Source: Albifimbria verrucaria
Taxonomy: Eukaryota > Ascomycota > Sordariomycetes > Hypocreales > Stachybotryaceae
Direction: 5' to 3'
Assembly (NCBI GenBank): GCA_020081605.1
Contig: JAHREC010000045.1
Span: 1,302,001-1,366,000, forward strand
Length of the DNA stretch: 64,000 bases
Under the pieces are notes generated by a model. That model worked only from the letters and a program-made list of their open reading frames with translations, searched no databases and was not told the DNA's origin. Each line of letters begins with the position of its first letter. The stretch's first letter is position 1. This document shows, piece by piece, positions 1 to 25,972 of the stretch. The translations under genes and the position numbers were made by a program.

Positions 1-3000
1 GGCATCACCAGTAATCTCAGCGGCTTCTAGTCCGGTGTATGTCTCGATAATTTGGCGAATCGCGTTATCAAAAGCTGGAGATGGGGCTTCACGCTGCTCA
101 CTGGGCCATTGCTACTGGCAAGAGCCTCACTGAGGTCAACTTCCGATTTTACGACGGAGGGCACGGGCGCAGAGCGATTTTGAAGTTGAGGTTGAGCAGC
201 TTGCTCGCTAGTAGCCTGATTAACAGGATCTAACAATTTCTCCAAGCGCGTGATTTCGAGTTTGGAGAAACGGCATCCTGTCAGGGCAGCTGCGAGAGAG
301 CCATCCTCTGAGAATGCGAATACATCGCCCAAAGCCTGGCTTGAACTTGTTGCAGTATATGAAGCATGGACTTTCCACGAGCGGCAATTAACCATATTAA
401 TGTCTCTGGCAACCACAGAGCTGTCAACACCAGTGCAGACCATGACTTCGTGAACATCGACAAGGTCACTGGTGTTGATTAGCAAGCCTATGACTTGGAT
501 AAAGTTATCCAAGGTTACTGCGTCGCAGACTTGGACAGCAGTACTTTCTTCCACGCCGGGCTGGCCAGGAGGAGTAACGATACGAGCCACTGCTTTAGTA
601 CCACTCATGGTGATATCAGAGACGCCCCGGAGAAAGGTTTCATACGAGACAACTCGTGAAAACAGGCTGTAAAGACGTCTTGACAGCATCCTCTCAGCGT
701 CGGTGTTGTTCGCAAGAGAAAATGCGTGGTTGTTATGCGAACTAGCTGCTGCATCTAGTTTGGATCCCGACGACCTATTCACACGACCCCTAGCATGCAG
801 TGTCTCCTTGCGGTCATTGCTGACAACTTTAAAGCTCCAGCTGCTCTGTGGGCTCACCTCCTCTAGTATGACTTCAACGTTTTCAGCCCGTAATCCCAGT
901 GGAGCCTGTATGTCAAGGCCTTGGAAATCGAGAGACGAGTTCTTCGGATCCCCAGCCACAATACTGAGAGCCATAGTGACACACTCAAGATAAACCGAAG
1001 CGGGACACAACGGACGGTTGCGAACGGCGTGACCAGCGACAATTTTCTTGAAACGATCACCCTCGACGAGTACACGGAAGCGTTGTGTCTTCTTTCCACC
1101 ATCGGGATTAGGAAGCAGCCTGACCATCCTTAACTTCTCTGGAGTTGAATTGGCCTGGTTCAGTTCTGATACACCAACTTGGTTCAACTGGGATTGAAAG
1201 ATGGCAGCTCGGTCAACATTATCAAGCCAGCCGGTTGTAGGTTCAAACTGGTATGGTGGCAACCATGTATAGCTTACACTATTGTCCTGCTCAACTAGAG
1301 GCCAATGTGTAACGTCAATAGATGAGCTCCATAGCGCACAAACTGTACGCGAGATGAGATTAGGAGAGTACTCTGTGTCCTTTGTAGAGAGGGCAATAAA
1401 ACTATGAGTATCTGGTCGCGCAACAGCCCTCTTGACCATTGATACTATAGGTGTGTTCATGCTAGCTTCGAGGAACACGCATGATCCCAGGGTTTGTTCC
1501 AAGCGTCGCACAGCATCGACAAGGAACACCGGATTCCGAGCGTGTTCTGAGGGGCTATAAGGAGCATCGGGTTTCTTTTGCGCGTCTGTACAGAATTCTA
1601 TACGGATTGTTGGTTCTCTCCACTGGAGAGAAGCTGCAACTTGATCGAGCTCGCCGAGAACAGGATCCACGAGACGAGAGTGGAAAGCATGGCTGGTATC
1701 GACTTTCAGATATTTAATGGGTGGAGATCTTGACGCCAGCTGAGTTTGGAGGTCGGAGATAGCACTGATTTCTCCAGTAACTACTTGGCTCGTATCCGAG
1801 TTGTAGCAGGCTATCTCAAGCCCAGTGTTAAGAATGAGATCTCTTACAACCTCTCTGCTGGAGAATACAGCAAGCATAGAGCCATTGTCAGGACCCCACT
1901 TGCTCTTCATCAAACTCGCACGGGCTGCTACAAGCTTGAGGCAATCTTGAATCGACAACTTCCCGCTGACAGCCAATGCTGTTAACTCACCGAGACTGTG
2001 GCCGACAACAGCATCAACCTTCAGTCCAGCACGTATCCATGTCGTAGCCATGGCATACTGGACAGCTACAAAACCGGACTGCAAAACTACAATGTCTGCA
2101 ATATTCTCAGTATCAAACACTGCAGGCAAGATAGAGGGATATCCAAGTCCTTGGAGGATATTGTTGCAATCATCAAGCGTAGCTCTGAATGCGGAGAGTT
2201 GATCGTAGAAGCCTCTATCGAGGCCAACTGTCTGCTTGCTCTGGCCGCCAAATGTAAGCACCACTGATTTAGGAGCACCCTGCTCGAGTAACGGCTTCTG
2301 AGACTCGCCGCTTGTCAAGGATTGGATGAGATCCGCAGTGCTACTAGCTTCGAATACAGTATAATGCTTGTGACGTTGTCGCTTCTCGCTTAGTGTACCG
2401 GCAACACTAGAAATGGGAAGTTGGGGTGTCTTGGTGAGATAAGCGGCTAGAGAGTCTTTGTATCTTCTCAAGCTGCTTGCTGTCTTCGCGCTCAAAATGA
2501 TAGGCCAAGTAGCACTGGGCTGTGTGCGAGACTCATGCTGCACAGGCTTTGATGGTGGCTGGGGAGGTTCGCAGCAGAGGATAGCAGCATTTGACCCAGC
2601 AGCGCCGTAAGAGTTGACAAGCGCAGCTCGAAATGGCACATTCCAATCTTTAAGGCTTGTTGATATCGCCATCCTATCTGGGCCGAGGGCAGGTATCTTT
2701 GGATTCCAGACTTTGTGACTGGCCTGAGGCGGTATCGCTTGGTGCTGCAGCATGCAGATGATCTTTAGTACACCTGCAACACCCGCAGCTGTTTCACAAT
2801 GGCCAATATTTCCTTTGATAGAGCCAACTTGGATTTCAGAGGCTCGCGTCTCGCTGCCAAACACAGACCGGATACTAGCAATTTCAAGGGGTCACCTGCC
2901 TGGGTACCGGTACCATGAGCCTCGACGTAAGTAACATGTTCAGGAGCCAAGTCAGCCTGTTTGAGCAACGATCTGTACAGATTCTTCTGGGCGTGGGATG

Positions 3001-5165
3001 ATGGAACAGTGAGGCCATCGGAAAGCCCACCTTGATTGGTGGCAGAACCGACGATAACTCCCATAATGCGGTCGCCATCCAATTGAGCTTGCTTGAGAGG
3101 CTTGAGCACAATAAGACCGGCGCCTTCAGATCGACAATAGCCATCAGCATTCTTATCGAAGGGCTTGCACTGTCCAGTAGGGCTCAAAAATCCAGCCTTT
3201 CCTAGATCCAGGAAGTTATTCATTCCTGTAATCAGGTTGACGCCGCCAGTAAGAGCCATGGAGCACTCTCCGCTTTGTACAGCTTTAACAGCCCGGTTAA
3301 TGGCAACCAGGGATGAAGAACAAGCCGTATCGATGATCTCAGCCGGACCTGACCATCCAAAGTGATAACTCAATCTCCCGCATAAGAATGCACGAATCGT
3401 TCCTGACGACGTGTACGCTGTGGGTGCGTAGGCGTTTGTGTTGTCAAGATACTCCACAAAGCTGGCTCCAATAAAACACCCAACAGGATCACCGCGTGAT
3501 CGCACATGGGAGCAGGTGTAGCCACTGCTCTCCATGGCTTCATAAGATAGTTCCAGTAGCATGCGCTGTTGAGGGTCCACATTGAGCATCTCACGGGCAT
3601 TAATGCCGAAAAAGGCGTGGTCGAATCTGTCGACACCCTCAACAAAGTTGCCAAAATACTCACGACTCTTGGTCGAAGGGGCACTTTGAGAAACTCGGAA
3701 ACTGTTGTACAGGTCGAAGCGGTCGGAACTCAACTTCTCATGTCTATCCTCACCCTTGGCGAGCAGCTCCCACAACTCATCTATGTTTCGCGCACCAGGC
3801 AAACGGGCCGAAGCGCCAATCACAGCAACGGCATTCTCAGGATATAGGTATGAATGGCCGTTAGTTGACCTCTCGCTGGGCTGTTTAGAGATACAGATGT
3901 TAGTATATGCCTTGCACACCATAGACGTGCCACTCACCATGCTCAATGAATCGGCCAGAGATTCTTGCGTGTCTTTGGTAGGGAGTACTCGGGGTGTCCG
4001 AGGAATGAGACCGTGTGCGGCCGTCTTAGTTAAACGGAGACCCTTTTCGAGAAACGGCGCCGTGGAAACAACATCTGTCAACCCAAAGTAGACGACGTTT
4101 GGTGCATCAACAGATGAGTTTTTGAGATCTTTCACAGTTTCGACCAATACAGTGTACCACTCGCATCTTGATGCTAGGATGGTGACGACGAGTTCTTTAG
4201 AAAGCGATCCTTCAGTCAGAGCTTTACCAGTTTTGTTAGAACGAACAGGTGCCTGTAGAGTTGAGGCATCAGGAAGTTGTAGATTTGGTGTCTCATCACA
4301 GAGCTTAGAAAGCGCTGCGGCAAGATTTTGGTTCTCTGGGTTATGGAGCTTGCCTCGGACATCAATTCTTTGAGCTTGAAGCTGCTCTTGCTCTCGCACA
4401 TAAGAGAAGACCTCTTGTAGTGTGCTAGAAGGGCCAACTATGCTGATTGACCGCGGATCTGTGACAGCTGAAACATAAGCTCCAGGAAAGCAATCTGTAA
4501 TGTCTTCGCCTTGGCCTTGATATTTTAAACGCACGGCAAGGGTTGTGGATTCAGTGCCCCGAGTTTCGTCCGCAGCTTCACCATATGCGCCCACCGCCAT
4601 CAGTATACGTAGTGCTGTAGCCGTATGTTGGATTACATCAGCCTCATCAGCAGCACAAGAGATAATTATAGCGCTCTAGAGTACGATTAGTGAAGGGGCC
4701 ATGGTAGTTGATGGTCTAGGAACGTACTGCTAATCCTCCGCAGAATCCTTGCAGGCCACCTGCTTCTTGGACATTGGCAAGAAATGCCTGGTGTGACAAG
4801 TTGTGGTATTCAAGATACCTCAGATATTGAGAGATCTGAATGATGACTAGTAGAGGAAGAGCCACTACACCAGACCTCGCTGAGGCCAGAGGAGTGCTGT
4901 CACCGCTTACTACCCAGTTGTATAGTACATCTACATACTCAGGCCCGGGTTGCAAAGAACCGACATCTGCATTAGCCTTGGCCAAAGTGGACCAGAATTG
5001 GCTGTGCTTGAGCTCTGAGATTTCATTTAGAAGTGATTGGCCATGCTTATGCTGACCTAGGAATGCGCGAAGGCCATTCAGGTACTCTTCATCTGGAGCC
5101 GCGGCCTGCGCGCAGAAGAAAGCAGCAGAGATAGAGGCTGAGACATTCTCTTTTGACGCAGGCAT
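1..5165 (-). CDS. Non-reducing polyketide synthase (SAT-KS-AT-PT-ACP...), 3' end beyond window
   Basis: Iterative type I PKS that builds an aromatic polyketide. Exon 1 is 5165-4728, the intron 4727-4676, and exon 2 runs from 4675 off the left edge. Domains in order: starter-unit acyltransferase with the GFCGG active-site Cys near the exon 1 end; ketosynthase with DTACSSS, VEAHGTGT and GNIGHCE; malonyl acyltransferase with GHSLGE; product template domain with a catalytic His (GHAVRNRP) and a later Asp (VCDAVTLDN); and the first part of an ACP at the window edge, so its Ser is not visible. The start is the Met 15 residues before the conserved AFFCAQ. Two one-base shifts break the frame, at the four-G runs 2888-2891 and 83-86 (+ strand). 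Both vanish if the run is five, so assembly error is likelier than decay. The PT-end sequence resembles methylating NR-PKSs, but any MT or release domain lies outside. SAT-type NR-PKSs often take a starter from a reducing PKS. Confidence 0.93.
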
Positions 5166-6178
5166 TGTGATGAAGCCTTCGTAGATGCTTGACAAAGGAC
5201 GTGTGTTGAACAGGATGGGTTGAGGACTTCGACCACAATCGATGTGGCTACCTCCGGAGTAAGTATTATGAGAAAAATGTCCAGGCAACAAGCTGTGACC
5301 TAAGTGATCTTTGTGACTAGCTATTTTTCATTGTTTGGTGAACGCCGCCGTATTGATCCTCCAACCGAAGCCCAACACATATCAATGGCCTGACTCCTAG
5401 CCACTACGTTTTCCCAACATCCCTCGCCACATGGGTTTAATGCGATCCCACGCTATAGAAGGCAACAATTATGTGTCTATTGGTAATTGCATGTCGACAA
5501 GATAAGGCACCATGCAGGAAGCTATTCGTCAATCCCTACTGCAGTGGTAACTATGCCAAGTTGGGCAATCTAAAACATGCCATATGCATGTCATTGATGG
5601 TAACCCACCGGAGCAGGGTCCTACCCTGGCTATGTTTTGATCAACCCGCCGGAACACCATGCATATGTAGCAATAATCCACCGGAGTCTAGAATAACGCT
5701 CTCGGCTGCTTGCCGAGGTTAGCGAGACGTCAGGCTGTGAGTACACAGATGTATTCTGCTTGTCGAATACTTCCAGTTACTTCTGTGATTTACGACCCCC
5801 ACCCGATATTTCAGACTGCTTGATCGGGCTCTTTGTGAGGATCGATGGCATTGCAGCGGCTAATTTGGGTTGATGCATGATGGTAGCTATGAGCCTTGCT
5901 GACCAGGTAATTGCCGCTCATGCAAGAGCATGTCCAGGATCTTCGGCAGGAAAGCGAAACGTTGATGTGACATAGGCTAGGCGTATCTTTCCCTGTGCTG
6001 TAACCATATCTTGATTGTAACATGGTCTTATTTCATCTGAACTGTTCTCCCATCCATGGTTGACGGCCACGTAGGTAACATTTTCTTGGATCTTATCACT
6101 GGAGCACTTGTTTTTTTGTGATAAGCATTTGAATCTTGTACATTGAATCGTTTACTGCCATTCCACCAAATATCCAAG
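5166..6178. promoter_or_regulatory. Divergent intergenic region, NR-PKS / glycosyltransferase
   Basis: About 1 kb separates the divergent starts of the NR-PKS (-) and the glycosyltransferase (+), so it should hold both promoters. It contains scattered short open frames without family resemblance and no convincing gene. No specific operator was identified. Confidence 0.4.
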
Positions 6179-7739
6179 ATGGCATTGGCTCTTGGTGCAT
6201 TTTGGTAAGAGTTATTCTTCATCCAACCATGACTTGAGCGGGAGCTAATATCTGTTCACAGGGCTTGGAGTGCCTGCGACAAAGCCCTCATCTCTTATTA
6301 TGCCAAAAAGTACAAAACCGTCCCTTTACCAGAAAAGCCCAAGTATAGCTCAAAGGACGTGAGTATCATCGTCCCAACCATTGACACGGAGTCTACTTTC
6401 ACCGAGTGCATGCGACTCTGGTTGAAGTCAAACCCTCTCGAGGTCATTATTGTGACCGTCCAGCGGAATAAGGAGAGAGTTGAGCAGTTGGTCGAGCCGT
6501 TAAAGGAGTATGCGGACAAGATCATCATTCTGATTGCGCCTTTGGCCAATAAGCGTCAACAGATGATGGTCGGTGTCAAGGCTGCCAAAGGAGAGATTTA
6601 TTCTCTAGTAGATGATGATGTTTATTGGCGGGTCGACCATGTCGTTCCCTACCTCCTGGCTCCCTTTCAAGATGCCGAGGTTGGCGCAGTTGCTGGTATT
6701 CAAAGGTTAGTCGACCCATCTGTGTTCAAGCCTTGATATGGCGAGTACTGAAACAACATATAGTGCTGAGATTCCACCTGAACGGCAAGATTCCAGCGTC
6801 ATCACACCCTGGGAGGCCATTTCAACTTTTGATTTGAATCAATGGAAAACCTCCCGAGAGGTACACTTTGCAGCTGACGGTGGCTGTTGGTGTTTATCTG
6901 CACGAACTCTGTTCATCCGTGCTACCATTCTACAAGACCCAGCCTTTGACGAAGCATACACGCATGAAGTCATTGGCCGCAGGGTCGTGAATACAGCCGA
7001 TGATGTCTTTTTGACTGAATGGGTGTTCGACCATGGATGGAAAGCATGCATTCAAAATGTACTTGAAGCCGAGGTTACCACCAACATTCCTCAAGACCAT
7101 AGGTTTGCATGGCAGGTTCTTCGCTGGGATAGAGGGAACTTCCGCTCTTTCTTAGGGTATATGCTTGTATATCCCGGCCTCCGTGCAATGATGCAGTGAG
7201 TCACATTTGGATTTTTTTCTTTTTTTTTTAAAAGGATATTCTTCAGTGAGCTGCGTTATTCTCTATGCTAATACTATGTTCACAGGAGACACCCATACAC
7301 AACTTGGAAGATGGTTGAGCGTCTCGCTCGACCTATATGGGCCATCGCGGCTATGGGATATTGGCTCCAAACGCTCTTAACAGCACCGTGGATCGCGTAA
7401 GTCATTCCTCAACATATTTAAAACAAGCCCTACGAGTATACAGTCTAATACCTGACTATGAACAGACTCGCCTATATCGCTTGGTTGGCCTTTGGATGGG
7501 GCGGATGGGTCTCAAGCTACGGATCATTTCTGGAAAAATACCCCTATTGCGGGCGTCAAGTATGGTCGTTTTTACTCTTCGACCTTGTTGGTCCTTTCGT
7601 AGACATCTATGTCTACCTCACCATGAACAACGACAACTGGTTAACTCGAGCAGCGGATACTCAGGATCTGAAGATCCAGAATATTGATGCTGACGGCGTT
7701 GAAGACTTGAGTGGGAGCCCCGAGAAACTCATGATTTAA
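6179..7739 (+). CDS. Family 2 glycosyltransferase, membrane polysaccharide-synthase type
   Basis: Likely an integral membrane processive or semi-processive GT2 enzyme using a nucleotide sugar. Five exons fit in phase: 6179-6204, 6262-6705, 6764-7195, 7286-7396 and 7466-7739. Visible motifs are the nucleotide-sugar fold start VSIIVPT, the metal-binding DDD in LVDDDVYW, a later acceptor-side Asp in NTADDVFLTEW, and the Q-x-x-R-W motif (QVLRW). C-terminal hydrophobic stretches around WAIAAMGYWLQTLL and IAWLAFGWG are membrane segments. The first exon is tiny and its ATG is the least certain part. Similar fungal GT2 proteins (Cps1/hyaluronan-synthase-like) make surface or capsule glycans. Its position between the PKS and inositol synthase could mean sugar decoration of a metabolite, but that is inference. 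No frameshift was noticed here, unlike most neighbours. Confidence 0.85.
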
Positions 7740-8375: not shown

Positions 8376-10183
8376 TTAGAAAAGCTTGTGCTCCAGAGTC
8401 ATATCAGACTCCGGCTCCAGACCAACACAGGCTCGGAAGATGTTAGTCAAAGCCGCGCGCTGTTTGGCGAGCGAATTCACCACAGGAGTGCCAGGGGAGT
8501 CAATGGAGCCTTTAGCATATAGCTAAGTACGCTAAGGACACTGTGGAATCCCTTGTAGGACGAAGCAGTTCCATCCTCGGGGTTGCCTTCCACTGAATTC
8601 GAGTCATCATCTCAGCGACTAGGACAAGATCGATGATCAGAGGCGAAGCAAGAAGCGAATCCTCACAAACGTTGAAGATGCTGCAACTGTCAGTTATCGT
8701 ACTTTGAATCAATACGAGGTGCACCTACGAGATTGTCTGGTGGCCACCCATGAAAATCTCTGCATAGTATTCATCGAGAGCTCGCTTGTTGTCGCCAACA
8801 GCCGGCATATATTTGATCACAACTGTATGATCAGGGTGTTCGCCTTCCTTGTAAAGCACTGTGTTTGCCTCAACCATGTCGTCCACGACATTTGATTTGG
8901 AGATTTCCTTGGATCGGAATTGTTTCTATCAAGGGCGAGTTAGTAATATCTCAACTGGAGACGTGTTCGTATATGACAATACCTGTTCACTCAAATTCTT
9001 TCCATCATTGTTGCCCAGATGGTTATAGCTTGCGATGGAAGTGAGCTTGATACCTGCGTTGATCAAAAAGTCCACCAAGGCAGACTTCATCTTAGTTTGT
9101 CCAGACTTGAAATCATCTCCTCCGATAAATGCATCATGCTTCTCGGCCAGCTCAATTGCGCCCGGGACGAAAGTGTTTTGAGGCGACCCATTAATGAATG
9201 GCGTCTTCTCCAAGATACACGCCACTGCAAATACAGTTGAGGGCGAAACCTCGCTATGGCCTTCCTCAATAGCCTTCAGCAAGTTATCAGCAGTGTCATT
9301 AACACCATCAATGATGTCAGCGTAACGTTCGGTATTTGCTGTCCACTGAACGATGACCTTGTCAAGGCCATGAGTCTGCTTGAACTCCCTTGAAAACGTT
9401 AGTGAAATTTCTCGTGATAGTATTTTTTTCGAAAAGAGAAAACAACTAAAAGACTTACTGAATATCGCGACGAATTTGGTCAACGTGTTCTGTGCAAGCA
9501 TGATCACCATCAAGAATATTATCAGCTCTATCGCCTTGGTTGGAAGCAATAAAGTCAGGATAGTAGATGCTGGGAAGTGGAACCATCTGGGACATCTCTT
9601 TCTTCACTTGTGCCTTCAAGGTAGGCTCAAGAACTGCTGCTCTATCCATAGCTGCGGCAAGATTCATGCTGCTAATATCCCATCCACCAATAACAAGATC
9701 GTTGGGATGAACCATTGGCAGTATGTCATGGAAGGGGATGTTAACATCACGGTGAGTCTTGGCGTCAGTACCAAGCTTCATGGTAGAGCCCATGATGACC
9801 GATCCATAATAGTTGGCTGCTCTAGGGCCTTCGCGAGTCTCCCAGGAGAGGTTGGAACGGTTGGCAATAATTCCAGCAGTAACTGTACTGCCATTGTTTC
9901 CACCCCACCCCACGAGCATGACGCCAACTTTGGGTACCTTGCGATCAATCTTGAACTCATATTGAGTGGTTTGAGGAGTGGCAATGTATTTTCCAGCATC
10001 GTCCTTTACGACGCTTGTGGTACGGTACGTGTACCTGGATAGAATATCATTATCCGTATACACCACATTGGGTGACTGGACAGTAAAAATGTCCTTTCCA
10101 GAAGATGGAGAACTTCTATGGACATCATTGCTGAGGCCATTGCCGTTTGAGAACTCCAGGTCTGTCTGCATATGGGGTGCCAT
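8376..10183 (-). CDS. INO1: Inositol-3-phosphate synthase (myo-inositol-1-phosphate synthase)
   Basis: NAD-dependent cytosolic enzyme converting glucose 6-phosphate to inositol 3-phosphate, the first step of inositol synthesis. Four exons fit in phase: 10183-9459, 9388-8983, 8925-8729 and 8680-8376. Family signatures include the Rossmann glycine loop [53 protein letters not shown] and [17 protein letters not shown], ending in the usual fungal KLF. Length (about 530 residues) is normal. Two frame breaks in exon 4 sit in G runs at 8579-8582 and 8494-8497, each one base short of what the conserved C-terminus needs. The gene lies between a glycosyltransferase and an efflux pump inside an apparent metabolite cluster, so it may be a cluster-resident second copy. 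A genome-wide count of INO1 is not possible from this window. Confidence 0.95.
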
Positions 10184-11359
10184 TTTGTCTTCAGACTCGG
10201 GGAGTACTCGGTAGCTAAGTGTCTTGGTTCAACCGGCCGTTATCTGGTAAAAGCCGAATCTGCCGCAGAGGAGCAGGCTGCTCCGTACGGGTTATGGACG
10301 CTTGTAATTGTTAGATTGCATTCTTCGTCTTGACATCTTCGTTCAGAAAGCAACTCACGAGTTTAAGAGGTTCGAAAACGTCCTGACGGCTTGGACGATC
10401 GTAGCCCGAAAGCACGATCTGTATTGTGAATAGGTAGAATAATTTGAAAAAGACCAGAGAATCTACTAGAAGCCGAGGCCACAAGTTATGAGCAGTTATG
10501 GCAATGTTCCTTAAGGTAGATGAAGAAAAGGTGTTGGTTCGGGAAGAGATTGAAACCTGTTCTTAAGCACAGAAATGGCTATACAACCTCTAGTATAAGA
10601 ATGTTTCAGCAGATACCTATACTACAATGTGTAGCCGAAAGAATGATTCGGCTCATTAACACAACGGAGGGTTGTTGTTATCGACCCATTACAAGAGATA
10701 GACTAGTTGATGCCATATCCGTATCTGATCATGCATCGCACATAGTCAACCCACCCTCGTCCTTGCAGCATGTGCTATCTTAGACAGTACCTAGAAGTCA
10801 CTGTACAGACAGTGTTACCAATCTACACAACATGCCAGCCGACCCCTTCATCTGCACCTGTGAATGAAATCCCTGTAAGGAGACCCTTCCTTCTGGTCGT
10901 GCATTACATCTGTACACGCACATTGTTACAGTACGGTACATAGCATTCCCATCCCACATTCTAACCGGGGATCTATGCCTAAAGGATTTAGCCGGTGCAG
11001 GGGTCCCGGGGAAGCGCGAGTTCCGCTCCGTTGTGGGATGAGCGAGCGCATGGCTTTTAGCGCCATCCGCCCATGTGCGCACATGCTGTCACTTCCGGTG
11101 GTTCCCTGCGAATGCTGCATCTGTACATCCGTACTCGGTATCCCCGGCGTGAATGTGGAGACCCTCGTACACTTGCCCTCTTTGCTGTGGCAATGCGTAC
11201 TCTCCAGCCGGTTTGGGGCGCATCCTCCCCTATGCATCACGATGTTATGACACAAGTATCCTTACCACTGTAGACAAGTTAGAATCACCTCACAACGTCA
11301 AATGATACGGTGAGAAAATTGAGCATGGTTAAAAAATTGTCAATTCTATTACCAATAAA
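10184..11359. other. Intergenic region, INO1 promoter and MFS 3' side
   Basis: About 1.2 kb between the INO1 start and the end of the transporter gene, both on the minus strand. It should include the INO1 promoter. Short open frames occur but none resembles a protein family. Confidence 0.4.
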
Positions 11360-13183
11360 CTATTTCTCTTTGATCTCCGTGACCGGAGGTGGAGCAGTTT
11401 CTTCCACAGAGTCAACCTTTTCACGGTCTTGAGGTAGTTGTCGCCACTCCATTGCCCAGCTTACCGTCCAAGCGAGGATTGGAGTAGCAAGGGCAACCCA
11501 AAATACGTTTCTTAGAGCAGAACTAAATGCTTCGATGACTGCGTCCATAAGCTCTGGTGGGACTATGTCCCTGAATTCCCTTCCACCCGCCGCCACCACA
11601 GCTGCACCATCTATGCCCTGCACCTGATTGAGGTCTTGCAGCAATTTGTCGACGAACAAGTTTTGCCCAACGCTAGGAGCTAAAGCCCCTCCAAGGAGTT
11701 GGAAAAACATGACCATCACGAGACCCGTTGGCACGTCGATCTTATCGAGAACGACCTGAACTGCCAGAATCGGCATCTGGCCACAAATTCCGTAGCCAAT
11801 GCCGGAAAGGATCTGAAATCCTATCCAGTGTCCTCCGGGACTGTTTGCACCGATGAGCTGAAATAGACCACCACCTGTGGCCAAGATGGGAGCACCAGTC
11901 CACATCAGCGGCACATAATGGCCAGTCCTGGAAGCAATCCAGCCAGCACTGAGCGTGGCAATACTGTTAGACACAATAATGGGGAGCAAAAATATACCCG
12001 AGTTTCTAGCACTAGTATTCTTCACCGACTGGAAGTATATTGGCCAATAATACGTTTGCATCACCATAGCAACTTGAACGAGCATCATGAAGCCGCAAGA
12101 CGCGCATACGGTACGGCTTTTAAAGATATGGAGAGGGATAGTCGAACTAGAACAAAATTAGCAGGGCATTTCCTTGAGAGAATGATGAACTAACCTCTCT
12201 TTGCCTCGGAATTGCAAGGCCAAGAACGTGATCAAGAGCAAGGCGAATCCTATCAAGCAGCCAAACACTTTGGGATTAGACCATGGATAAACAATGCCAC
12301 CCCACTGCAAAGCCAAGTTCAGACATGTTATGGCTCCTAGGAGCACGATTGCACCTGGAATATCCAATTGTCGTATCTTTTGTGCCCATGACAGTCCTGC
12401 TTTTGCTGCTGGGGAGGGTTCCTCAGCGTGAACCAAACTAGTATCAAACCGACCGCCCCAAAAGCTAACGATAGTGTGTCAGCGAGAGGAAATTTACGTC
12501 GCGGGAGGGAAGAACTCACGCAGGTTGATCCAGAATATGAACCGCCAGGTAAGCGACTTGTTGTCTGTTATGGCACCTCCAACGAGCGGTCCCATGGCAG
12601 AGCCGATGCCGTACATGCCGAAAACAATGGCCATCACCATTGCCTGCTTCTTCAAAGCGACACAATAGGACATGATGGTTGTTGCTCCACTGACCAAGCC
12701 AGCGGCGCCCAGTCCAGAAACTGCCCTCCCTACTATAAGTGCTGTCGAATTGGGCGCAAGGGCCGCAATAACGCAGCCGAGTTCGAACACCACTAGAAGA
12801 ATGCAGTACGTCCATTTGATGTTGTAGACAGTATAAAAACGACCGCAAGTCGGCAGAAGGGCCATTTGCGCAATCAGGTAAGAGGAACCATACCAACCCA
12901 TATCGTTGAGGCTTTTGAAGTCACTGGTGATTTGGGGAATTGCGGTCGCTTCGATGTACATTAGCTTGACGACTCATCTTTGTGGGATAGGAGAAGACGT
13001 CGTACCTAGAATAGTGTTATCGAGTGCTAACACAAAGGAAATGGACATGAAAGCCACGGTCAAAGAGACCAGAGCCCAGCCCTGCATGTACTTGGCATCC
13101 TGCTCTTCTTCGCTTTGCTGGTTTTCGCCAGCATCTCCAGTCACTCCAACAGGGCCACGAGGCTCTACCTCAACGCTCGCCAT
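11360..13183 (-). CDS. MFS drug/toxin efflux transporter, DHA2 (14-TM) type
   Basis: Plasma-membrane proton-coupled exporter, probably of the cluster product. Exons are 13183-13006, 12948-12520, 12464-12195 and 12146-11360, with introns of 48-57 bp that keep frame. An acidic N-terminal tail leads into TM1 ending at the LALDNTIL motif C-like signature, followed across the first splice by ATAIPQIT, then DMGWYGSSYL, GRAVSGLGAAGL, WRFIFWINLPFG and a long series of hydrophobic segments to a charged tail ending IKEK. This matches transporters commonly found in fungal metabolite clusters (HC-toxin and aflatoxin pump relatives). One frame break in exon 3 falls in the G run 12411-12414, short by one. 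The gene is transcribed away from the regulator-side spacer. Confidence 0.93.
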
Positions 13184-14847: not shown

Positions 14848-16032
14848 TCAAAGATTTATATTTATGCCAAAATCTTCCTTCAGTTTATCAAAAACCAATT
14901 GAATCATAGCCATACGGCTCCTCTGATCCTCGATTATCAACATGTGTGTTTGCAAAGGTAGGGCTGGCGAACCTTCAGGTGCGCCATCAAATCCGAGCAC
15001 TTCCAGCTTCTTCTGAATTCGGTGAAGATAGTGCACACCGGTGTGCAAAAGCATCTGGAGCCGGAATTGTGGAGGTGGTGATAGTTTCACTCCAGCGATG
15101 GAAAAAGGAGGGGCTCTGCTGGAGGTTTGCTTCCATCGTCGCCCGTCCCATTTTCTTCCATCATCTCGCTATCTCCTTGTTGGAGGCAGTGGTGAATCGA
15201 CGAGTAAAGCCAGTGATGCATCTCGGTCATCCGCATCGATATTGAAGTAAGCTGTAAGCAGACGGCTGTGCTGATGGTCTGGGGTTGCTGCGATCCTCTG
15301 AATCCGTGCGTAACTCTCGCGAGCCCCTGGAGGAGCTCAAGGAACTCGGAAGAACTTTCGAGCACGTGAGCAGCCTCCTGCTCAAGTTTAGTAGGATCCA
15401 AGTGTGCTTCATAACCCAGCATGCGCGCAATCTTTACTTGAAAGTGCGCAAGCTGGTGCGTGTAGTCTCGGCCAGCTGAACGCATTGCGTTTGCTTTTGA
15501 CATGGCAGAGAGGGGCTCTGGCCTGTGACGATTTCAATTTCGCGTAGAGAACCCTGGTGAATTCGTTGATTGATGCTGAGCGTGCTGGACGGAGCCGTTT
15601 CAGCTTCAGAGATGCCCAAAGGCCAAGGTAGCGCTCCGAGAGTTTCTGCTTGGTCTAAATGGACTCCTGTAGTACCCGAGAAACTGTTCACGAAGCCGTG
15701 CGGTGTCCAGGGGCCTGTCTGGTCATCCATATAGTAATCGGGTCCTTCACCTGTACCGGATTCGGTGAGTGTGGTCTGAACCCAGGTTGCATCTTCCGCC
15801 ATACTCCGACTCGGCGGGAAATGACACCCCGTATAGGCTCTGCATCAGCTGCACTTTTCTGATTCATCACACTGCCAGCCTTGGTGACTGGACGACCCGG
15901 CCTGCCGGGTTCGCTATAGTTACAGTGAACTTTGGCTGTGCGGCAACGGGTGCACTGCTGCCCGCGACCATCTGTTTTACACTGCATCTTCATTTTGTGG
16001 CAGCGATCACACGCGGACCTTTTCGCACTCAT
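14848..16032 (-). CDS. Zn2Cys6 transcription factor, AflR-like cluster regulator
   Basis: Likely pathway-specific activator. The N-terminus carries a binuclear zinc cluster, C-x2-C-x6-C-x8-C-x2-C-x6-C (CDRCHKMKMQC then CTRCRTAKVHC), at about residues 8-37, followed by a basic, Pro-rich linker (EPGRPGRPVTK). The C-terminal two thirds is helical and includes Cys- and His-rich stretches seen in AflR-type regulators. The coding frame is broken three times, at 15827-15830, 15512-15515 and 15110-15113. Each site is a run of four C or G, and a fifth base rejoins the flanking frames without introns, giving about 395 residues. The gene is divergent from the ER-ACP-cAT gene, 776 bp apart, so a shared promoter is plausible. 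The target motif is not derivable here. Confidence 0.88.
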
Positions 16033-16808: not shown

Positions 16809-19800
16809 TCATGTCACATCCCTCTGAAAACACCTCGGGGAACCGCGAACCTTCCACGATTTCGAAGGATTCAGTGCTCGCAAAACAAGTGCGAGGACTC
16901 GCGAACAATGCGTCTATAACGCCTCTAGGCTCTGCATTATCCCCTTTCACGACCCTCACCGCCCACTCAAGATGATCATTGCCAGATCTGGAGACCTCAG
17001 TACCTTGTCATTCGTTGACGATGAATCTGCCAAAGCTGCCCTAGAGTCAGACGAGGTTCAGATCAAAGCCTTCGCGTACGCATTGGGCCATCCCGACATT
17101 GATGGACCATTTGGGACTAGCAACGCTTCCCCTGTACTGTGGAGTGTGCTGGTGTCATTACAGCAGTGGGATCAAGCCTAGAGCACGTATTCCAGGTAGG
17201 AGACCGGGTATGCGCATGGAATACCAGTGTCCCTTTGGCCAGCCTGACCCGCGCCAAAGGTTCTGTGGTGCAAAAGATCCCCAAGTCGTGGTCTTTTCCA
17301 ATGGGTGCAGCTTTTCCGCACAATGCCTCAGTTGCTTACTATGGCCTGATCGATTGTGCCCAAGTTGAGCCTGGGCAATTGGTGTTAGTTAACGGTGTTA
17401 GCGGTTCTCTTGGCCAAACTGTCGCTCTGGTAGCGAGTCACTTGGGACTCCAGGTCCTTGCCACAGTCAAGAATGAAGCCGAGAAAAGGGCGGTTTTGTC
17501 ACTCAAAGGCCCCAAATTTGCCCAAATTTTCTATTCTGACGATTTCACATTATCAAAGTCATTACTAGCCTTCACGAGAGGCGTTGGAGTGGATGTGGTG
17601 TTTAATACATCATCTGCTCCTCTCCCAGAAGACCTGTTGAAGGCTGTCGTCCCATTTGGTACTGTTATTGAGATATCTGGTCGCCGCAGCTGGTTTTCTG
17701 CAACCCTGGATAACTCTACCAAATACGTGTCATTCAACGCTACAAAACTGCTTCGATATCGTCCTTCTCTTGCAGGCAATGCTTTAAAAGCTTTGATAAA
17801 TCAGTTCCCAGACGAGCATGCTCACAGCTTGTTCTCTGTAGTAACAACACCTATTACTGATAATGGAACAACAATACAGGCTGTGATGAATCAAGCTAAT
17901 ACCGATAAAATTGTACTACTGGCAGGCATTGATGCAGTGGTTAGCGTGAATAACAACATCTCGACTTCAAATGGTCCTGCTGGGATAGAACCTTTGGTTC
18001 GGTTTGTTGCTGGTCTCAACATACCACAAGATCAAAAGGATACCATACTTACGATGGCCTCGCAACTATTTGCTACAAGAGCTGTAACAACTCTATCGCA
18101 AGCAATTGGGACCACTCATCCATTCCAAGCAAGCGGTGCCACGCTGCCTTTGCATAAAAGTGAAGCAACTTTAGCGCAACGCTTAGCCAACGTTTCAAAC
18201 CTCTCTCAGGCATGCCAGATTATAGTCGAAGAACAGATTGAGAAGTTGGCGTCCCTCCTGGACCTCACAGTGGATGAAATCAATCCCCGCAAAAGTCTTA
18301 TTGATCTTGGTTTGGATGAGGCGACAGTGGTTGAGCTCAAAGACTGGCTAAGAAGTGCATTTGGCGCTGACATTAGCACACCAGATATCACTGGAGCTAC
18401 AGATCTTGAATCGTTAGCCGCTTTGGTTACACAAAGATCCAGATTTATCCCCAGAGAGTCTGGTGATATATCAAAGGGGTCAACGGAAGGGCGAAGGCCA
18501 GTGAGACTAAAGCCAATGGAAATACCGCGTCCGATAGGGCTGTAAATGGATCAGCCTCTCCAAATCAAGCTGGAAAGAGAGAATCTCTCTTCGTTCCCAA
18601 TCAGTTGCCTAAACTCCCTCTGCCTGACATCAATGCACTATGCAGTGCATTTTTAACTGGTGCCAAAGTATTCGCAACGCCTGAAGAGTACAACAACACT
18701 GTTCGTGCCATTGAAGATTTCAAACGGCCAGGAAGTGCAGGAAGACGCCTCTATGACCGTGCGGCAGCTAGAGCTGCAGATCCTGCCATTGAGAATTGGG
18801 CGTGGGAACCAACACTTCGACGTAATTTTCTTGACCGAAGAGTCTCACTTACCCCTGTTCCAGCTTCTGGTTTGGCCATCCATTCAGTAAAAGACAACAC
18901 TCACAAGCAGAGCGGGCTAGTCTTCTCGCATACGCAGCCAACATGTTCAGACTGGACTTGGAGGCAGGCCGCGTCAAGCCTGTGATGCTAAATGAGCGTG
19001 AGCTGACAACTGCATGCTACCCTGGATGTTCAATTCTGTACGCATTCCCGGTTCTGAAACCGATGAGATGAGAAGATATCCTAACAACGATTACTTTGTC
19101 GTTTTTGGAGAGGCCATGCATTCAAGCTTGATCTTTTTGTTGAGAATCGACCAGTTACCTACCAGGAATTGTTCAATGCTATCAAATCAGTATTGAGCCA
19201 GCCACCGCCACAGCGATCGTTTGTTACCATCTTCACTTCAGACAATCGAAGTCGATGGGCTGAGACAAGACAAAAGCTCCAACAACTGAGTCCTCAAAAC
19301 GCTGCAAGCATAGAGGCCATTGAAGCTGCAGCCTTTACTATTTCTTTGGATGAAGCTGCTCCTGAGACCTCAGCCGAGCGTGGACGCCAGTTCCACTGTG
19401 GAGGGATACTGATGCAGCGAACCGTTGGAACGACAAGTCTATCCAGTTCATTGTATGTAGCAATGGTTATTCGGGCACTGTAGGTGACCATACCATGTTG
19501 GATGCTATGACATTGAGCGAACTGAACGATGCTATTGCAGTTGCAATAGATAGCGACATTCAGCTGGATAGCCCGGGTACCTTGCCGACAGCTAATACCA
19601 TTACGACTGTACACCTGCCACTGGAAACAGACGAAACACTGGATGCAAATATTGACAAGGCGCGAGCTCAGTACTTTAATTTCGTCAAGGATGCCGAGCA
19701 CATCTATTTTCTTTTCAAAGGCTACGGCTCCAGGGCTCTTCGAGCCAAGAAGATGTCTCCTAACAGCGTATTTCAAATGGTCGTCCAGCTCGCCGCTCGA

Positions 19801-20376
19801 TGGTTGTATGGAGAATCCCCCATGCTGGGAGACTGTCAACCAAGCTCACTACCACCTCGGCCGGGTTGATATTATACAAATCGTCAACCCCCAAGTCGCT
19901 GCATTCTTAGATGCTGCAAGTGATTCATCTATAAGCATGTCTGAGCGACGCAACCTCCTAATTAATGCCACTCGTGCACACGTGGCGTGCATCAATAAGT
20001 CCCGAAGGAACCTAGGGTGGGAGCGAAATTTCTCTGCAATACGTGCTCTAATGGAAGAAAACGATCCACTGCCAGCGTTGTTCGATGACCCGGTTTACAA
20101 GAGGGTAAGACCAAGAGTGATGATTAGCAATTGCTTCGAAACTGGCATGACGGAGAAAGGCTGTATGTGGAGAGATATTGATTCCGTATGGATGCATTAT
20201 GAAGTACATGATGATGAGTAAGTGCTAACCAAATCTCTCTTCATATTTTGTCGCTAACATGTTGATACAGTGTTTATTTTTCGATCGTAACGAGAGAAAG
20301 CGGCCGTGCGACGAAGTTCTGCCAGCTTTTGCAGGATGCTGCTGAGCTTGTTCGACAGATCGTCTTCACAGACTAG
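16809..20376 (+). CDS. PKS-derived protein: enoyl reductase - defective ACP - carnitine acyltransferase
   Basis: Looks like the C-terminal part of a highly reducing PKS with a fused choline/carnitine O-acyltransferase (cAT), starting just before the ER. Domains: medium-chain reductase-type ER (HRPLKMIIARSGD start, cofactor loop VNGVSGSLGQTVALVAS) encoded to about 17,930; a linker too short for a ketoreductase; an ACP-like domain where the usual D-S-L is D-E-A (LGLDEATVVEL), so the phosphopantetheine Ser is missing; then the cAT from LPKLPLPDINALC with QAERASLLAYAA, RIPGSETDE and the catalytic-His region GDHTMLDAMT, ending after a final intron (20218-20270). No KS, AT, DH, MT or KR is found upstream. 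Frame breaks at 16837-16840, 17129-17132 and 18476-18479 are four-base G/C runs that need five; several more lie in the cAT part (about 18,850-19,480 and 19,860). PKS-cAT fusions are known in fungi (such as Trichoderma virens Tv6-931), but those I know of are full length. The Met at 16809 is the best start. It could be a relic. Confidence 0.8.
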
Positions 20377-22250: not shown

Positions 22251-23658
22251 TTAGCTCTGAGCATCAAAGACGACTTCCATTATGCCGGTATAAGGACCAA
22301 AATCACCTTTGGTGTTGAACCTCCGCTGGCTTACGATACTGAAGCGTTCATCAGCCTGCTTCAATACATTTATCCATTCTCCCTTCTCGCGTTCTCGGCC
22401 TCTGGCCTTGGCGAGCATCAACATGTCGAAAGCTCTACAAAACGATCAGTCATAAGCATGGATCTAGGGAGAGAAGGATATCTCACCTAACAGTCCTCTC
22501 ATCGAGTAGAGACATCTCACCAGGGGCGGAGCACCACTATCGATAATGACGAAGCGTGCGCCAGGCTTCAGAGCAGGGACCTGGTTCTTGAAAATTTGGA
22601 CAACATAATGATCAGGCCAGTTGTGGAGGCACTGCTTGATTAAATACACATCGGCGGAAACGGTTTGGGGTGTGAAGAAGCTGTAAGGCATGAAAGACAC
22701 GCGGCCACTTGTACGCAGATCCTCCGGTATCAACTCCTCGGCACCCACGAGCTGCTTGGGGAGATCTTGTACTATCACGCGAACAGTCGGGTTCTGCGTA
22801 GCAATATGGATAGCATCAGTACCCCGAGACCCGCCCAGGTCAATAACGAGACCTGAAGTCAACGACGACCAGTCAAATGCACCGCTAAGAGTCAAATGGG
22901 ACGCAATAACTGCTGGGCGGCTTGAGAAGCTTGCAAACGACGTCTGTGCCAATGCAAAACGGCGAGAAAATTCTGCGTTTGTTTCCATGTAGTCATATGA
23001 AGACAGTTCAGTACCATGGGAGAGTTGGAAGCCCGTCTGGTTAGGTTCTTGACCGTCCTTGAACTTCTCAAATGCAGGAACAACATATGTGTTAGACACA
23101 AAGGCATCCTCTCCTAGGAGCCAGAGGCCTTCGCGCAATAGTGGCTGCTCAGCAAGCAGACGTGATGCCAAGCTGTGTCCTACATAACCTGGCCGCGGCT
23201 CGGAGAACAGTCGGTGGAAGACCATGGCATATCGGATGATGCGGCGCATGTCTATCTCATGAACCTCGCACTGCTTCGCGAGTTCTGTGTAGGAAACTTC
23301 TCCCCGACTGGTATTTTGGCCGCAATGTTCCATTTGGAAATAGCGTGTAGAGCGGCACCGCTTTCCTACACAGGTGAGGTTAACTGAGAAGCACGAACGG
23401 GAGTACAGTAACGATTCAGCAACGTACAATGGGCCTCAGGAATGCCATCGGTCCCTGGAGCAGATCGGCGAGCTCTAAGGAAGCCTCGATGATGTTGATG
23501 CGAGCAGACTCTACATCATCAGAGGAGATACCAAAGTTCACGGGGCCATCGCTGTCAAAAGAGGGAGTGGGAAGGTTATTCTCCTGCAAATAAGAGTCGA
23601 CAGTCTTAGTACTGTTAATTATGGCTTCTGCCAATTGAATCAGCCTCGACGAAGCCAT
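22251..23658 (-). CDS. SAM-dependent O-methyltransferase, plant-type (AflP/OmtA-like)
   Basis: Class I O-methyltransferase that probably methylates a phenolic hydroxyl of the pathway product. Exons are 23658-23428, 23365-22487 and 22434-22251. The start MASSRLIQLAEAI matches the usual N-terminus of fungal members. An N-terminal dimerisation and winged-helix region (SYTELAKQ) precedes the SAM-binding loop VIDLGGSRGTDAI, then DLPKQL, SFFTPQTVSADVYLIKQCLHNW with the conserved acid/His region, and VIIDSGAPP. The third exon supplies the terminal helix. Two breaks, at the C run 23302-23305 and the G run 22523-22526, each need one more base to keep the conserved frame. Length is about 430 residues, normal for the family. 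The substrate cannot be read from sequence. Confidence 0.92.
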
Positions 23659-24555: not shown

Positions 24556-25972
24556 ATGGCAAACATGGACAGACATTCTCCAAACTCACAGCCTAGCAAG
24601 GTATGGCAGTCGTTGGTGAAATCGTGTTTACCACCTCAAAACCGCGATGTTGAGTTTTGGTGGCATCACACGGGTTATCAGTTGGCCAAGATGATCGAGG
24701 CAGCGGGCTACACTGTTGAGAGACAATATGAAATACTCTTGTTCCATTACCATTGGATAGTTAGTACCTTTGCTCAACTGCCCGCTTCATGAACTATTCA
24801 TTAACCCTATACACAGGTTCCCCGCCTGGGGCCTGCACCAGAAGCTGACGGTCGCCCCAAATGGAAATCGCGCATGTCCCAAGACTGCTCTCCCTGGAGT
24901 ACTCTTGGAAGTGGAACACGGCAAAGTCTGAGCCCAAGGTTAGTTATTCGTGGGAGGCCTTCAACCCGGGCTCGGACTCCTGCCTGAACCCTCAAAACCA
25001 CGCACTTTCACTCGAGTACATGCGTGACGTCCCAAGAGTGGTTCCAGATGTGGACTTTACTTTGTCTCGACACTTCCTTGGGCTGATCGAGCAAGGCGAC
25101 AGGCAGTCGTCAAGCTTTCTCCATGCCATCGATCACCGCGCTCAAGGTCTCGATCTCAAGTCGTACTTTATCACGCGAGATGAGTCTACGGGGAAAGAGT
25201 GGGATGAAGCCATTACAAAGCTCGACCCGGATAATGCTGCTCATCATACATTGAAAAACTTTCTTACAAATAACTCCGAAGGAAAATTGATGTTCCCAAT
25301 GTATGTTAATTTCCTAGAATTACTTTATGTCATACCATCATTGCTAACATATGATATGCGCAATAGTGTTCTCGCGTGGGATAATGTGGCTCCCAGTAAA
25401 TCGCGCTTGAAGTATTACTTCCTTACAGAGAATACGAGCTTCAAATCTATGCGAGAGATCATGACCATAGGTGGTTTGCATGATATTCCTGAGGAGGCAA
25501 TGCAAGACCTGCGTTCGCTTATTATCACTCTTCTTGAGTTGCCAAATGACTATCCTGAGAATGAAAACTTCCTGATCCCTCCACCAGCTAATAAGAAGTG
25601 GAAAGAGCAAGAGGATCAGGCCAGGACATTTGCCTATTATTTTGACATAGCTGCCGGCCAAGGCAATAAGCCTGATGTCAAATTCTACCTCCCCACTCGT
25701 AGCTTTGGCGGTGACGACTACACCCTGTCGCGCCGCTTGGTGGAGTGGATGAAGATTCATGGCCGTGGTGACTACGGCGAACGCTATCTCAACATGGTGG
25801 ATGCCCTGGCTGAGCATCGTGGCCTTGCAAATGGCAAGGGATTGCATAGTTACATTACCTACCAGTTTGGAAAGGTGGTGTCCCAGATATCAAGTCCTAT
25901 TTGATCCCTGAGACATACCATCCTACCCGATTTGACAATGTTATTCAGAATAGCTCTAGGTTTGATAATTGA
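24556..25972 (+). CDS. Aromatic prenyltransferase, DMATS family (ABBA fold)
   Basis: Soluble, metal-independent prenyltransferase moving a dimethylallyl or longer prenyl group onto an aromatic acceptor. Exons are 24556-24759, 24817-25300 and 25367-25972. The family signature DCSPLEYSWKWN, corresponding to the acceptor-binding DGTPIEYSW region, is at about residue 105, followed by FNPGSD, DFTLSRHFL, KSYFITRDES (diphosphate shield Lys/Tyr), RLKYYFLTENTSF, PDVKFYLPTRSFG and a C-terminal TYQFGK then YLIPETYHP. Two shifts: the C run 24893-24895 and the G pair 25874-25875 each lack one base; without correction the frame stops at 25904. Length (about 430 residues) is normal. Beside an NR-PKS it suggests a prenylated polyketide, though indole or terpenoid acceptors cannot be excluded. 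Confidence 0.92.

What the first reader, a model, noticed from the sequence alone, without database searches (positions are those of the whole stretch)
16809..20376. A front-truncated reducing PKS: enoyl reductase, carrier domain without its Ser, and carnitine acyltransferase
Seen: an ER domain, an ACP-like domain with D-E-A in place of D-S-L, and a cAT domain with its catalytic His region, with no KS, AT, DH, MT or KR in any frame upstream, only 776 bp of divergent promoter and then a regulator. Known: fungal PKS-cAT fusions exist as full highly reducing PKSs, and trans-acting ERs derived from PKSs (LovC) exist. Inference: this may be a trans-acting reductase plus acyl-release enzyme in one polypeptide, working on another synthase, rather than dead remains. 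The retained cAT and ER motifs alongside a lost carrier Ser argue for altered use.
Basis: partly seen in the sequence, partly recalled or inferred. Interest (0 to 1): 0.8.

Follow-up and report, generated by a model that had tools for sequence, protein, structure and literature searches.

The report
Broken synthase kept as trans release enzyme
A fungal gene that looks like the wreck of a polyketide-making enzyme is probably a working stand-alone release enzyme: it has lost its assembly parts and its carrier site, but it keeps a well-preserved acyl-transfer domain, close to a second synthase without a release domain and to genes that could make a sugar-inositol acceptor.

Summary
An ER-like domain, a carrier domain without its Ser (D-E-A) and a complete carnitine-acyltransferase (cAT) domain lie at 16811-20376; no KS/AT/DH upstream, no KR between ER and carrier. 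They look like assembly errors: a metagenome relative (P0001, 98% identical) reads through them in one 1085-aa ORF, all seven touch homopolymer runs, HSP70/CCT genes of the same genome break likewise, and C/G runs of 6 or more are absent from the 152 kb examined. The lost Ser is real (P0001: D-Q-A). The trans-ER idea is weak, because conserved ER positions are lost. Trans-release gains support: measured against two kin that keep the Ser, cAT is nearly as constrained as between those two, while ER and carrier are relaxed. The neighbouring non-reducing PKS ends after its methyltransferase; of six listed homologues at 53% identity or more with that domain, only its near-identical copy lacks a hydrolase domain. 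Between them lie a glycosyltransferase of the LtbB (glucinol) clade and a second inositol-phosphate synthase. Best reading: a stand-alone cAT on a vestigial ER-carrier scaffold offloads the non-reducing PKS product onto glucosyl-inositol. Partner and acceptor are inferred; the combination is seen in this genome only.

The parts
16811..20376 (+). ER(vestigial)-ACP(no Ser)-cAT gene, the finding; eight reading-frame pieces in this assembly
   Evidence: unbroken ORF P0001
16811..16971 (+). possible N-terminal extension (MSHPSENT...), frame 2; weak resemblance to the DH end of P0003
   Evidence: 208 of 5000 shuffles reach the score: inconclusive
16972..17961 (+). ER-like domain (P0001 residues 1-330), conserved positions lost
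18201..18440 (+). carrier (PP-binding) domain; codon 18318-18320 is Glu where Ser is expected
18614..20218 (+). carnitine acyltransferase domain, main exon (PF00755 1-548), catalytic-type His kept
20269..20373 (+). last exon of the cAT domain after a short intron (about 20219-20268, inferred)
   Evidence: 20269-20364 is 75% identical to P0003 1327-1358
1..4675 (-). non-reducing PKS SAT-KS-AT-PT-ACP-MT, running off the left edge to C33:1300562; no release domain. The frame 4719-5327 just upstream matches no family and may be its N-terminus
6233..7736 (+). GT2 glycosyltransferase in the LtbB (glucinol synthase) clade
8584..10228 (-). myo-inositol-1-phosphate synthase gene, one of two in the genome (the other on C10)
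11363..12973 (-). MFS transporter in two frame pieces
15090..16032 (-). Zn2Cys6 regulator (PF00172 in 15688-16032), divergent from the finding
22467..23435 (-). O-methyltransferase (PF00891)
24849..25901 (+). aromatic prenyltransferase (Trp_DMAT, PF11991)

Best explanation
The gene is a truncated PKS-cAT kept as a stand-alone acyl-release enzyme. KS-AT-DH (and, already in its kin, KR) are gone. The ER and the Ser-less carrier are vestigial, at most a scaffold or docking part. The cAT domain is the working part. It most likely takes the finished aromatic acyl chain from the carrier of the neighbouring non-reducing PKS (SAT-KS-AT-PT-ACP-MT), which has no thioesterase, hydrolase or reductase domain of its own, and transfers it to a polyol. 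The polyol is probably glucosyl-myo-inositol (glucinol) made by the clustered LtbB-type glycosyltransferase from inositol supplied by the clustered inositol-phosphate synthase. Shown: anatomy, an unbroken ORF in a relative, protein-level constraint on cAT, no release domain at the end of the neighbouring PKS, co-location. Inferred: action in trans, the partner, the acceptor.
For: Unbroken 1085-aa ER-ACP-cAT ORF 98% identical to the window, from a JGI metagenome contig. Frame breaks explained as assembly errors: all 7 break zones touch a homopolymer run of 3 or more (3 of 5000 random sets do) and 5 of 7 a run of 4 or more (0 of 5000); 15 breaks in 10 of 19 HSP70 and CCT/HSP60 gene groups of the same genome, 12 of 15 in the deletion-like step (pieces; count); no C/G run of 6 or more in 151,722 bases against 46 expected. 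Domain-wise constraint: identity P0001-P0002 / P0001-P0003 / P0002-P0003 is cAT .67/.65/.72, ACP .45/.41/.72, ER .56/.43/.65. Of the columns where P0002 and P0003 agree, P0001 keeps 287 of 366 in cAT and 23 of 48 in ACP, Fisher p 2.3e-5. Window against P0001: 10 changes in 450 ER-ACP residues, 3 in 582 cAT residues, p 0.02. Neighbouring PKS: P0200, 99% identical, ends at the same residues after the MT. Of the 18 homologues listed at 53% identity or more, six carry the MT helix-turn-helix PF18558, and five of these six also carry the hydrolase family PF07859; P0200 alone does not. The hydrolase sits C-terminal of the MT in P0203 and at the C-terminus of P0205. No PF00975 or PF07859 match lies within 230 kb of the PKS-to-cAT stretch on C33. 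GT2 lies in a 100/99-supported clade with proteins of A. candidus, A. viridinutans and P. tritici-repentis, named as carriers of the ltb cluster in PMC10901484, in which the cAT offloads onto glucinol (parts 1-3 of 4 read). The INO1 of the cluster is one of two in the genome.
Against: No expression, product or DNA-level dN/dS. P0001 is the only close relative and its surroundings could not be fetched; the constraint test rests on three sequences. Columns invariant in seven other PKS-cAT proteins discriminate poorly: P0001 keeps 12 of 13 in cAT, 7 of 9 in the carrier, 31 of 42 in ER. None of the 79 GT2 hits has the contig length of P0001, P0002 or P0003 (only the longest contig of a cluster is shown), so the cAT-GT2 pairing is seen in this genome only; nor does any of the 120 listed non-reducing PKS homologues (of 1048) share a contig length with a GT2 hit. 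Only 15 of those 120 show PF07859; the other 12 of the 18 nearest lack the MT in the table (several are fragments or marked partial), and from P0219 (51%) down many MT-bearing homologues have no hydrolase, so its absence is not unique to this gene. The finding has more frame breaks per kb than the neighbouring PKS (7 in 3.25 kb against 3 in 6.06 kb; Poisson p 0.0014; conditional binomial p 0.026), so local decay in this strain is not fully excluded. A tannase/feruloyl-esterase-like gene lies at 49593-50842. The cAT domains described in PMC10901484 work fused to their own PKS; no trans case turned up in the capped listings. The structure model is poor for the cAT.
Confidence: 0.45

Rival explanations
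1. Relic: a front-truncated PKS-cAT on its way out; the relative still has an unbroken ORF only because decay is recent, and this strain has truly lost the frame.
For: KS, AT, DH, KR and the carrier Ser are gone; ER and carrier are relaxed; excess of frame breaks compared with the neighbouring PKS; natural slippage also favours homopolymers.
Against: cAT is nearly as constrained as between Ser-bearing kin and has fewer changes than ER-ACP; 7 breaks beside only 13 amino-acid differences is many indels for natural decay (inference); all 7 touch homopolymer runs in an assembly without C/G runs of 6 or more; similar breaks occur in HSP70 and CCT genes.
Confidence: 0.26
2. Working cAT with another job: the stand-alone cAT moves acyl groups between CoA or carrier and carnitine or a small polyol for some other pathway; the neighbouring PKS is released by an unlinked hydrolase, and the glycosyltransferase and inositol synthase act separately.
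For: Other hydrolases exist in the genome (54 PF07859 matches) and a tannase-like gene lies in the window; partner and acceptor rest on co-location only.
Against: No PF00975 or PF07859 match within 230 kb of the cluster on C33; GT2 belongs to the clade tied to cAT offloading and has no second close copy in the genome (next match 31%).
Confidence: 0.2
3. Trans-acting enoyl reductase plus release enzyme.
For: An ER-like domain is recognisable by sequence.
Against: P0001 differs in 45 of 97 columns conserved in 16 other PKS proteins, among them K171, R190, K237 and H141; no KR to feed an ER; the neighbouring PKS is non-reducing.
Confidence: 0.04
4. Gene fission: the missing KS-AT-DH half survives elsewhere and meets this protein in trans.
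For: The kin P0002 and P0003 also lack KS in their gene models.
Against: Genome searches with P0003 and P0002 (34 of 97 and 33 of 156 first-look candidates scored) show no orphan KS-AT-DH; the best AT matches, 51% on C6 and 48% on C8, lie in loci that also carry KS, ER and cAT; the carrier Ser is gone.
Confidence: 0.05

Closest known systems
LtbA of the luteodienoside cluster (HR-PKS with C-terminal cAT, Aspergillus luteorubrus, PMC10901484)
   Same: cAT domain; clustered GT2 of the LtbB clade; an MFS transporter gene nearby (its homology to LtbE was not tested); offloading onto an inositol glycoside expected
   Different: LtbA is a full KS-AT-DH-MT-ER-KR-ACP-cAT synthase and its cAT serves its own carrier; here only ER-ACP(no Ser)-cAT remains, beside a non-reducing PKS, and the cluster has its own inositol-phosphate synthase, which the described ltb cluster lacks
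Tv6-931 PKS-cAT of Trichoderma virens (as described in PMC10901484; the original study was not held)
   Same: cAT that accepts polyols
   Different: full synthase, own carrier, release and recapture
DH-ER-ACP-cAT protein CIB48_g3497 of Xylaria polymorpha (P0003) and the AT-DH-ER-ACP-cAT protein of Diplogelasinospora grovesii (P0002)
   Same: closest sequence kin with a named organism; no KR found; same ER positions lost
   Different: carrier Ser kept (D-S-L); DH, or part of AT and DH, still present; no sign of linkage to the GT2
LovC-type trans-acting ER (recalled, not tested by sequence)
   Same: PKS-derived ER outside a full synthase
   Different: ER here has lost conserved positions and is fused to a dead carrier and a cAT

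Membership tests
Fungal HR-PKS with C-terminal cAT | KS-AT-DH in the same protein | tested here: not met
Fungal HR-PKS with C-terminal cAT | carrier with phosphopantetheine Ser | tested here: not met
Fungal HR-PKS with C-terminal cAT | C-terminal cAT with catalytic His | tested here: met
Glucinol-offloading (LtbA-type) system | clustered LtbB-type glycosyltransferase | tested here: met
   (LtbB itself was not available; its clade is placed through species named in PMC10901484)
Glucinol-offloading (LtbA-type) system | cAT fused to the PKS that it serves | tested here: not met
Glucinol-offloading (LtbA-type) system | polyketide glucinol ester as product | not testable with these tools
   needs chemistry
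Glucinol-offloading (LtbA-type) system | cAT groups with LtbA cAT | not tested
   LtbA sequence was not at hand
Trans-acting PKS enoyl reductase (LovC-like) | conserved ER positions kept | tested here: not met
   against 16 PKS proteins; LovC itself not compared
Pseudogene | frame disabled outside this assembly | tested here: not met
   P0001 unbroken (one cluster of two sequences)
Pseudogene | constraint lost along the whole gene | tested here: not met
   cAT constrained, (protein level, three sequences)

The most novel reading that the evidence does not exclude
A non-reducing PKS without a release domain is served by a stand-alone cAT salvaged from a broken PKS-cAT of another class, with a dead carrier kept as scaffold; the cAT esterifies an aromatic polyketide onto glucosyl-inositol made by the same cluster. 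This would be release by a carnitine acyltransferase in trans and across PKS classes.
Probability: 0.39. Interest if true: 0.78.

Novelty: new variant of a known kind. Interest (0 to 1): 0.61.

Why it matters
cAT domains are a recently described class of PKS release domains that act within their own synthase and can attach polyols or a sugar-inositol. A natural stand-alone version, serving a different class of synthase, would show that this release step is portable, would give a tool for making polyol esters of aromatic polyketides, and would be a clear case of a domain surviving the death of its synthase by changing partner. It is directly testable by heterologous expression of three or four genes.

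Tried and rejected
Gene fission was tested with P0003 and P0002 against the genome and is disfavoured (only part of the first-look candidates was scored). A recent duplicate as donor was rejected: single DNA copy. Co-location of cAT, GT2 and non-reducing PKS in other fungi was looked for through contig lengths and not found. The N-terminal link to the DH end is inconclusive. A first control count grouped pieces of different genes wrongly and gave 10 breaks; one search replaces it with 15, of which one nested piece (C10:5394000-5394164) is doubtful and four have gaps of 11-28 bases. A first conservation script read the N-terminus from 16809, out of frame with the ATG; redid it. One search anchored one piece wrongly; one search replaces its break zones. 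Dropped rows: in the window-P0001 difference count, 15 mismatches at P0001 630-647 were left out because that alignment ran past a break. Pfam columns: PF00107 in the ER is below its curated cut-off. The AlphaFold model (mean pLDDT 66.5, pTM 0.39) was too weak for the cAT and was not searched. Nucleotide dN/dS could not be computed because the DNA behind P0001 and P0200 could not be fetched (metagenome scans capped at 0).
Full report
What is there. The window is C33:1302001-1366000 of a 48.4-Mb assembly in 41 contigs, fungal by its genes. At 16811-20376 on the + strand there is an ER-like domain, a carrier domain and a carnitine acyltransferase domain. The first ATG is at 16811. The codon for the carrier Ser reads Glu at 18318-18320. 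tblastn with P0001, P0002, P0003 and P0005 finds no KS, AT or DH upstream; apart from hits with E above 0.1, the other matches in the window belong to a separate synthase at its left edge. There is also no KR between ER and carrier, and Pfam finds no KR in the two closest named relatives, P0002 from Diplogelasinospora grovesii and P0003 from Xylaria polymorpha.

Frame breaks. A metagenome protein, P0001, reads through all of it in one ORF of 1085 residues (98% identity over the ER-ACP query). The eight window pieces tile P0001 from 1 to 1085 without loss. Placed codon by codon, all seven break zones touch a homopolymer run of three or more, which 3 of 5000 random sets of zones do, and five touch a run of four or more, which 0 of 5000 do; six of the seven are C or G runs. 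The same genome shows such breaks in essential genes: 15 breaks in 10 of 19 HSP70 and CCT/HSP60 gene groups, 12 of 15 in the deletion-like direction, one nested piece being doubtful (pieces; count). In 151,722 bases of this genome (window, L048, L049 and 17 gene loci) there is no C or G run of six or more where a Markov model expects 46, and 55 of five or more where it expects 192; A/T runs are close to expectation up to five and in excess from seven on; no other genome was run as control. The neighbouring PKS, compared with a 99% identical unbroken protein (P0200), has three breaks in 6.06 kb. I conclude that most or all breaks are assembly errors. Against this, the finding has more breaks per kb than the neighbouring PKS (Poisson p 0.0014; conditional binomial p 0.026), and natural slippage also favours homopolymers.

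Carrier and ER. P0001 has Gln at the carrier site, so the loss of Ser is not an artefact of this assembly. P0002 and P0003 keep D-S-L, and the three other PKS-cAT loci of the genome keep D-S. In the ER, K171, R190 and K237 (16/16, 14/16 and 15/16 in 16 PKS proteins picked from the 120) are changed in P0001, P0002 and P0003; P0001 alone also lost H141, A143 and G312. A working trans-ER is therefore unlikely.

Constraint by domain. Using P0002 and P0003 as yardstick, cAT identity is .67 and .65 to P0001 against .72 between the two; the carrier drops to .45 and .41 against .72, the ER to .56 and .43 against .65, and the region between them to .26 and .27 against .54. Of columns where P0002 and P0003 agree, P0001 keeps 287 of 366 in cAT, 112 of 183 in ER and 23 of 48 in the carrier; Fisher p is 2.3e-5 for carrier against cAT and 2.9e-10 for ER, inter-region and carrier together against cAT. 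Between window and P0001 there are 10 changes in 450 ER-ACP residues and 3 in 582 cAT residues, p 0.02, after leaving out 15 mismatches where one alignment ran past a break. A second, broader yardstick is less clear: of columns invariant in seven other PKS-cAT proteins, P0001 keeps 12 of 13 in cAT, 7 of 9 in the carrier and 31 of 42 in ER. This is a protein-level stand-in for dN/dS and suggests that cAT is still used; three sequences carry it.

Surroundings. The synthase at the left edge is a SAT-KS-AT-PT-ACP-MT non-reducing PKS. Its last residues coincide with those of P0200 and no further domain follows. Of the 18 homologues listed at 53% identity or more, six carry the MT marker PF18558 and five of these six also carry the hydrolase family PF07859; the sixth is P0200. 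Of the remaining twelve, three carry the hydrolase without the MT and nine carry neither, several of them fragments or marked partial. Farther out the picture is mixed: PF07859 is in 15 of the 120 listed, and P0219 (51%) and many below have the MT without it. P0203 carries the hydrolase after the MT and P0205 at its C-terminus. tblastn with P0203, P0205, P0207, P0208 and P0209 finds no such domain in 84 kb, and no PF00975 or PF07859 match lies within 230 kb of the PKS-to-cAT stretch on C33. A tannase-like gene at 49593-50842 is outside these families. Between this PKS and the finding lie a GT2 glycosyltransferase, an inositol-phosphate synthase (one of two in the genome; 80-82% to the other over about 310 residues, 53% over the N-terminal 70), an MFS transporter and a Zn2Cys6 regulator. 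To the right lie an O-methyltransferase and a DMATS-type prenyltransferase.

The glycosyltransferase. Its best matches are 67-71% identical. In a tree of 26 rows it falls in a 12-row clade, support 100/99, as the first branch beside proteins of Aspergillus candidus, A. viridinutans, Pyrenophora tritici-repentis and others. PMC10901484 (parts 1-3 of 4 read) names these three species as carriers of the ltb cluster, where LtbB is proposed to make glucinol from NDP-glucose and myo-inositol and the cAT domain of LtbA offloads the polyketide onto it. That the proteins in my tree are the very ltb genes is inferred from species and similarity. The window copy is the only close one in the genome; the next match is 31%.

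Mechanism. The best-supported explanation is a stand-alone cAT on a vestigial ER-carrier scaffold that releases the product of the neighbouring non-reducing PKS onto glucosyl-inositol. Shown: unbroken ORF in a relative, protein-level constraint on cAT, dead carrier, PKS without release domain, clustered genes fit to make the acceptor. Inferred: trans action, partner, acceptor. The weak points are that the pairing is seen in one genome only and that contig lengths give no sign of it elsewhere.

Known or new. In the held open-access library no paper on a trans-acting cAT or on cAT with a non-reducing PKS turned up in the listings, some of which were capped; subscription papers are mostly not held. 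Only PMC10901484 was opened; the others were seen as listings. I rate it a new variant of a known kind.

Noticed in passing
window 1-64000 and other loci of the genome: C and G runs of six or more are absent (0 against 46 expected in 152 kb), a sign of a systematic assembly error that fakes frameshifts in genes of this genome.
   Followed up: yes
window 1-4675 and L048 8562-10000: Non-reducing PKS that ends after its methyltransferase, while its nearest methyltransferase-bearing homologues carry a hydrolase domain.
   Followed up: yes
window 8584-10228: A second inositol-phosphate synthase gene beside secondary-metabolite genes; the ltb cluster as described has none.
   Followed up: partly
G000 C6:855292-865023, C8:32980-43075, C16:359610-368225: Three other PKS-cAT loci in the same genome, with D-S carrier motifs.
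   Followed up: partly
P0002, P0003, P0005: PKS-cAT proteins in which KR is missing or not recognised, with ER positions lost in P0002 and P0003; possibly an overlooked subclass that no longer reduces.
   Followed up: partly
window 24849-25901 and 22467-23435: DMATS-type prenyltransferase and O-methyltransferase close to the cluster, suggesting a prenylated, methylated aromatic product.
   Followed up: no
window 49593-50842: Tannase/feruloyl-esterase-like gene in broken frames.
   Followed up: no
L048 3529-3888: Tyrosinase-like piece left of the non-reducing PKS.
   Followed up: no
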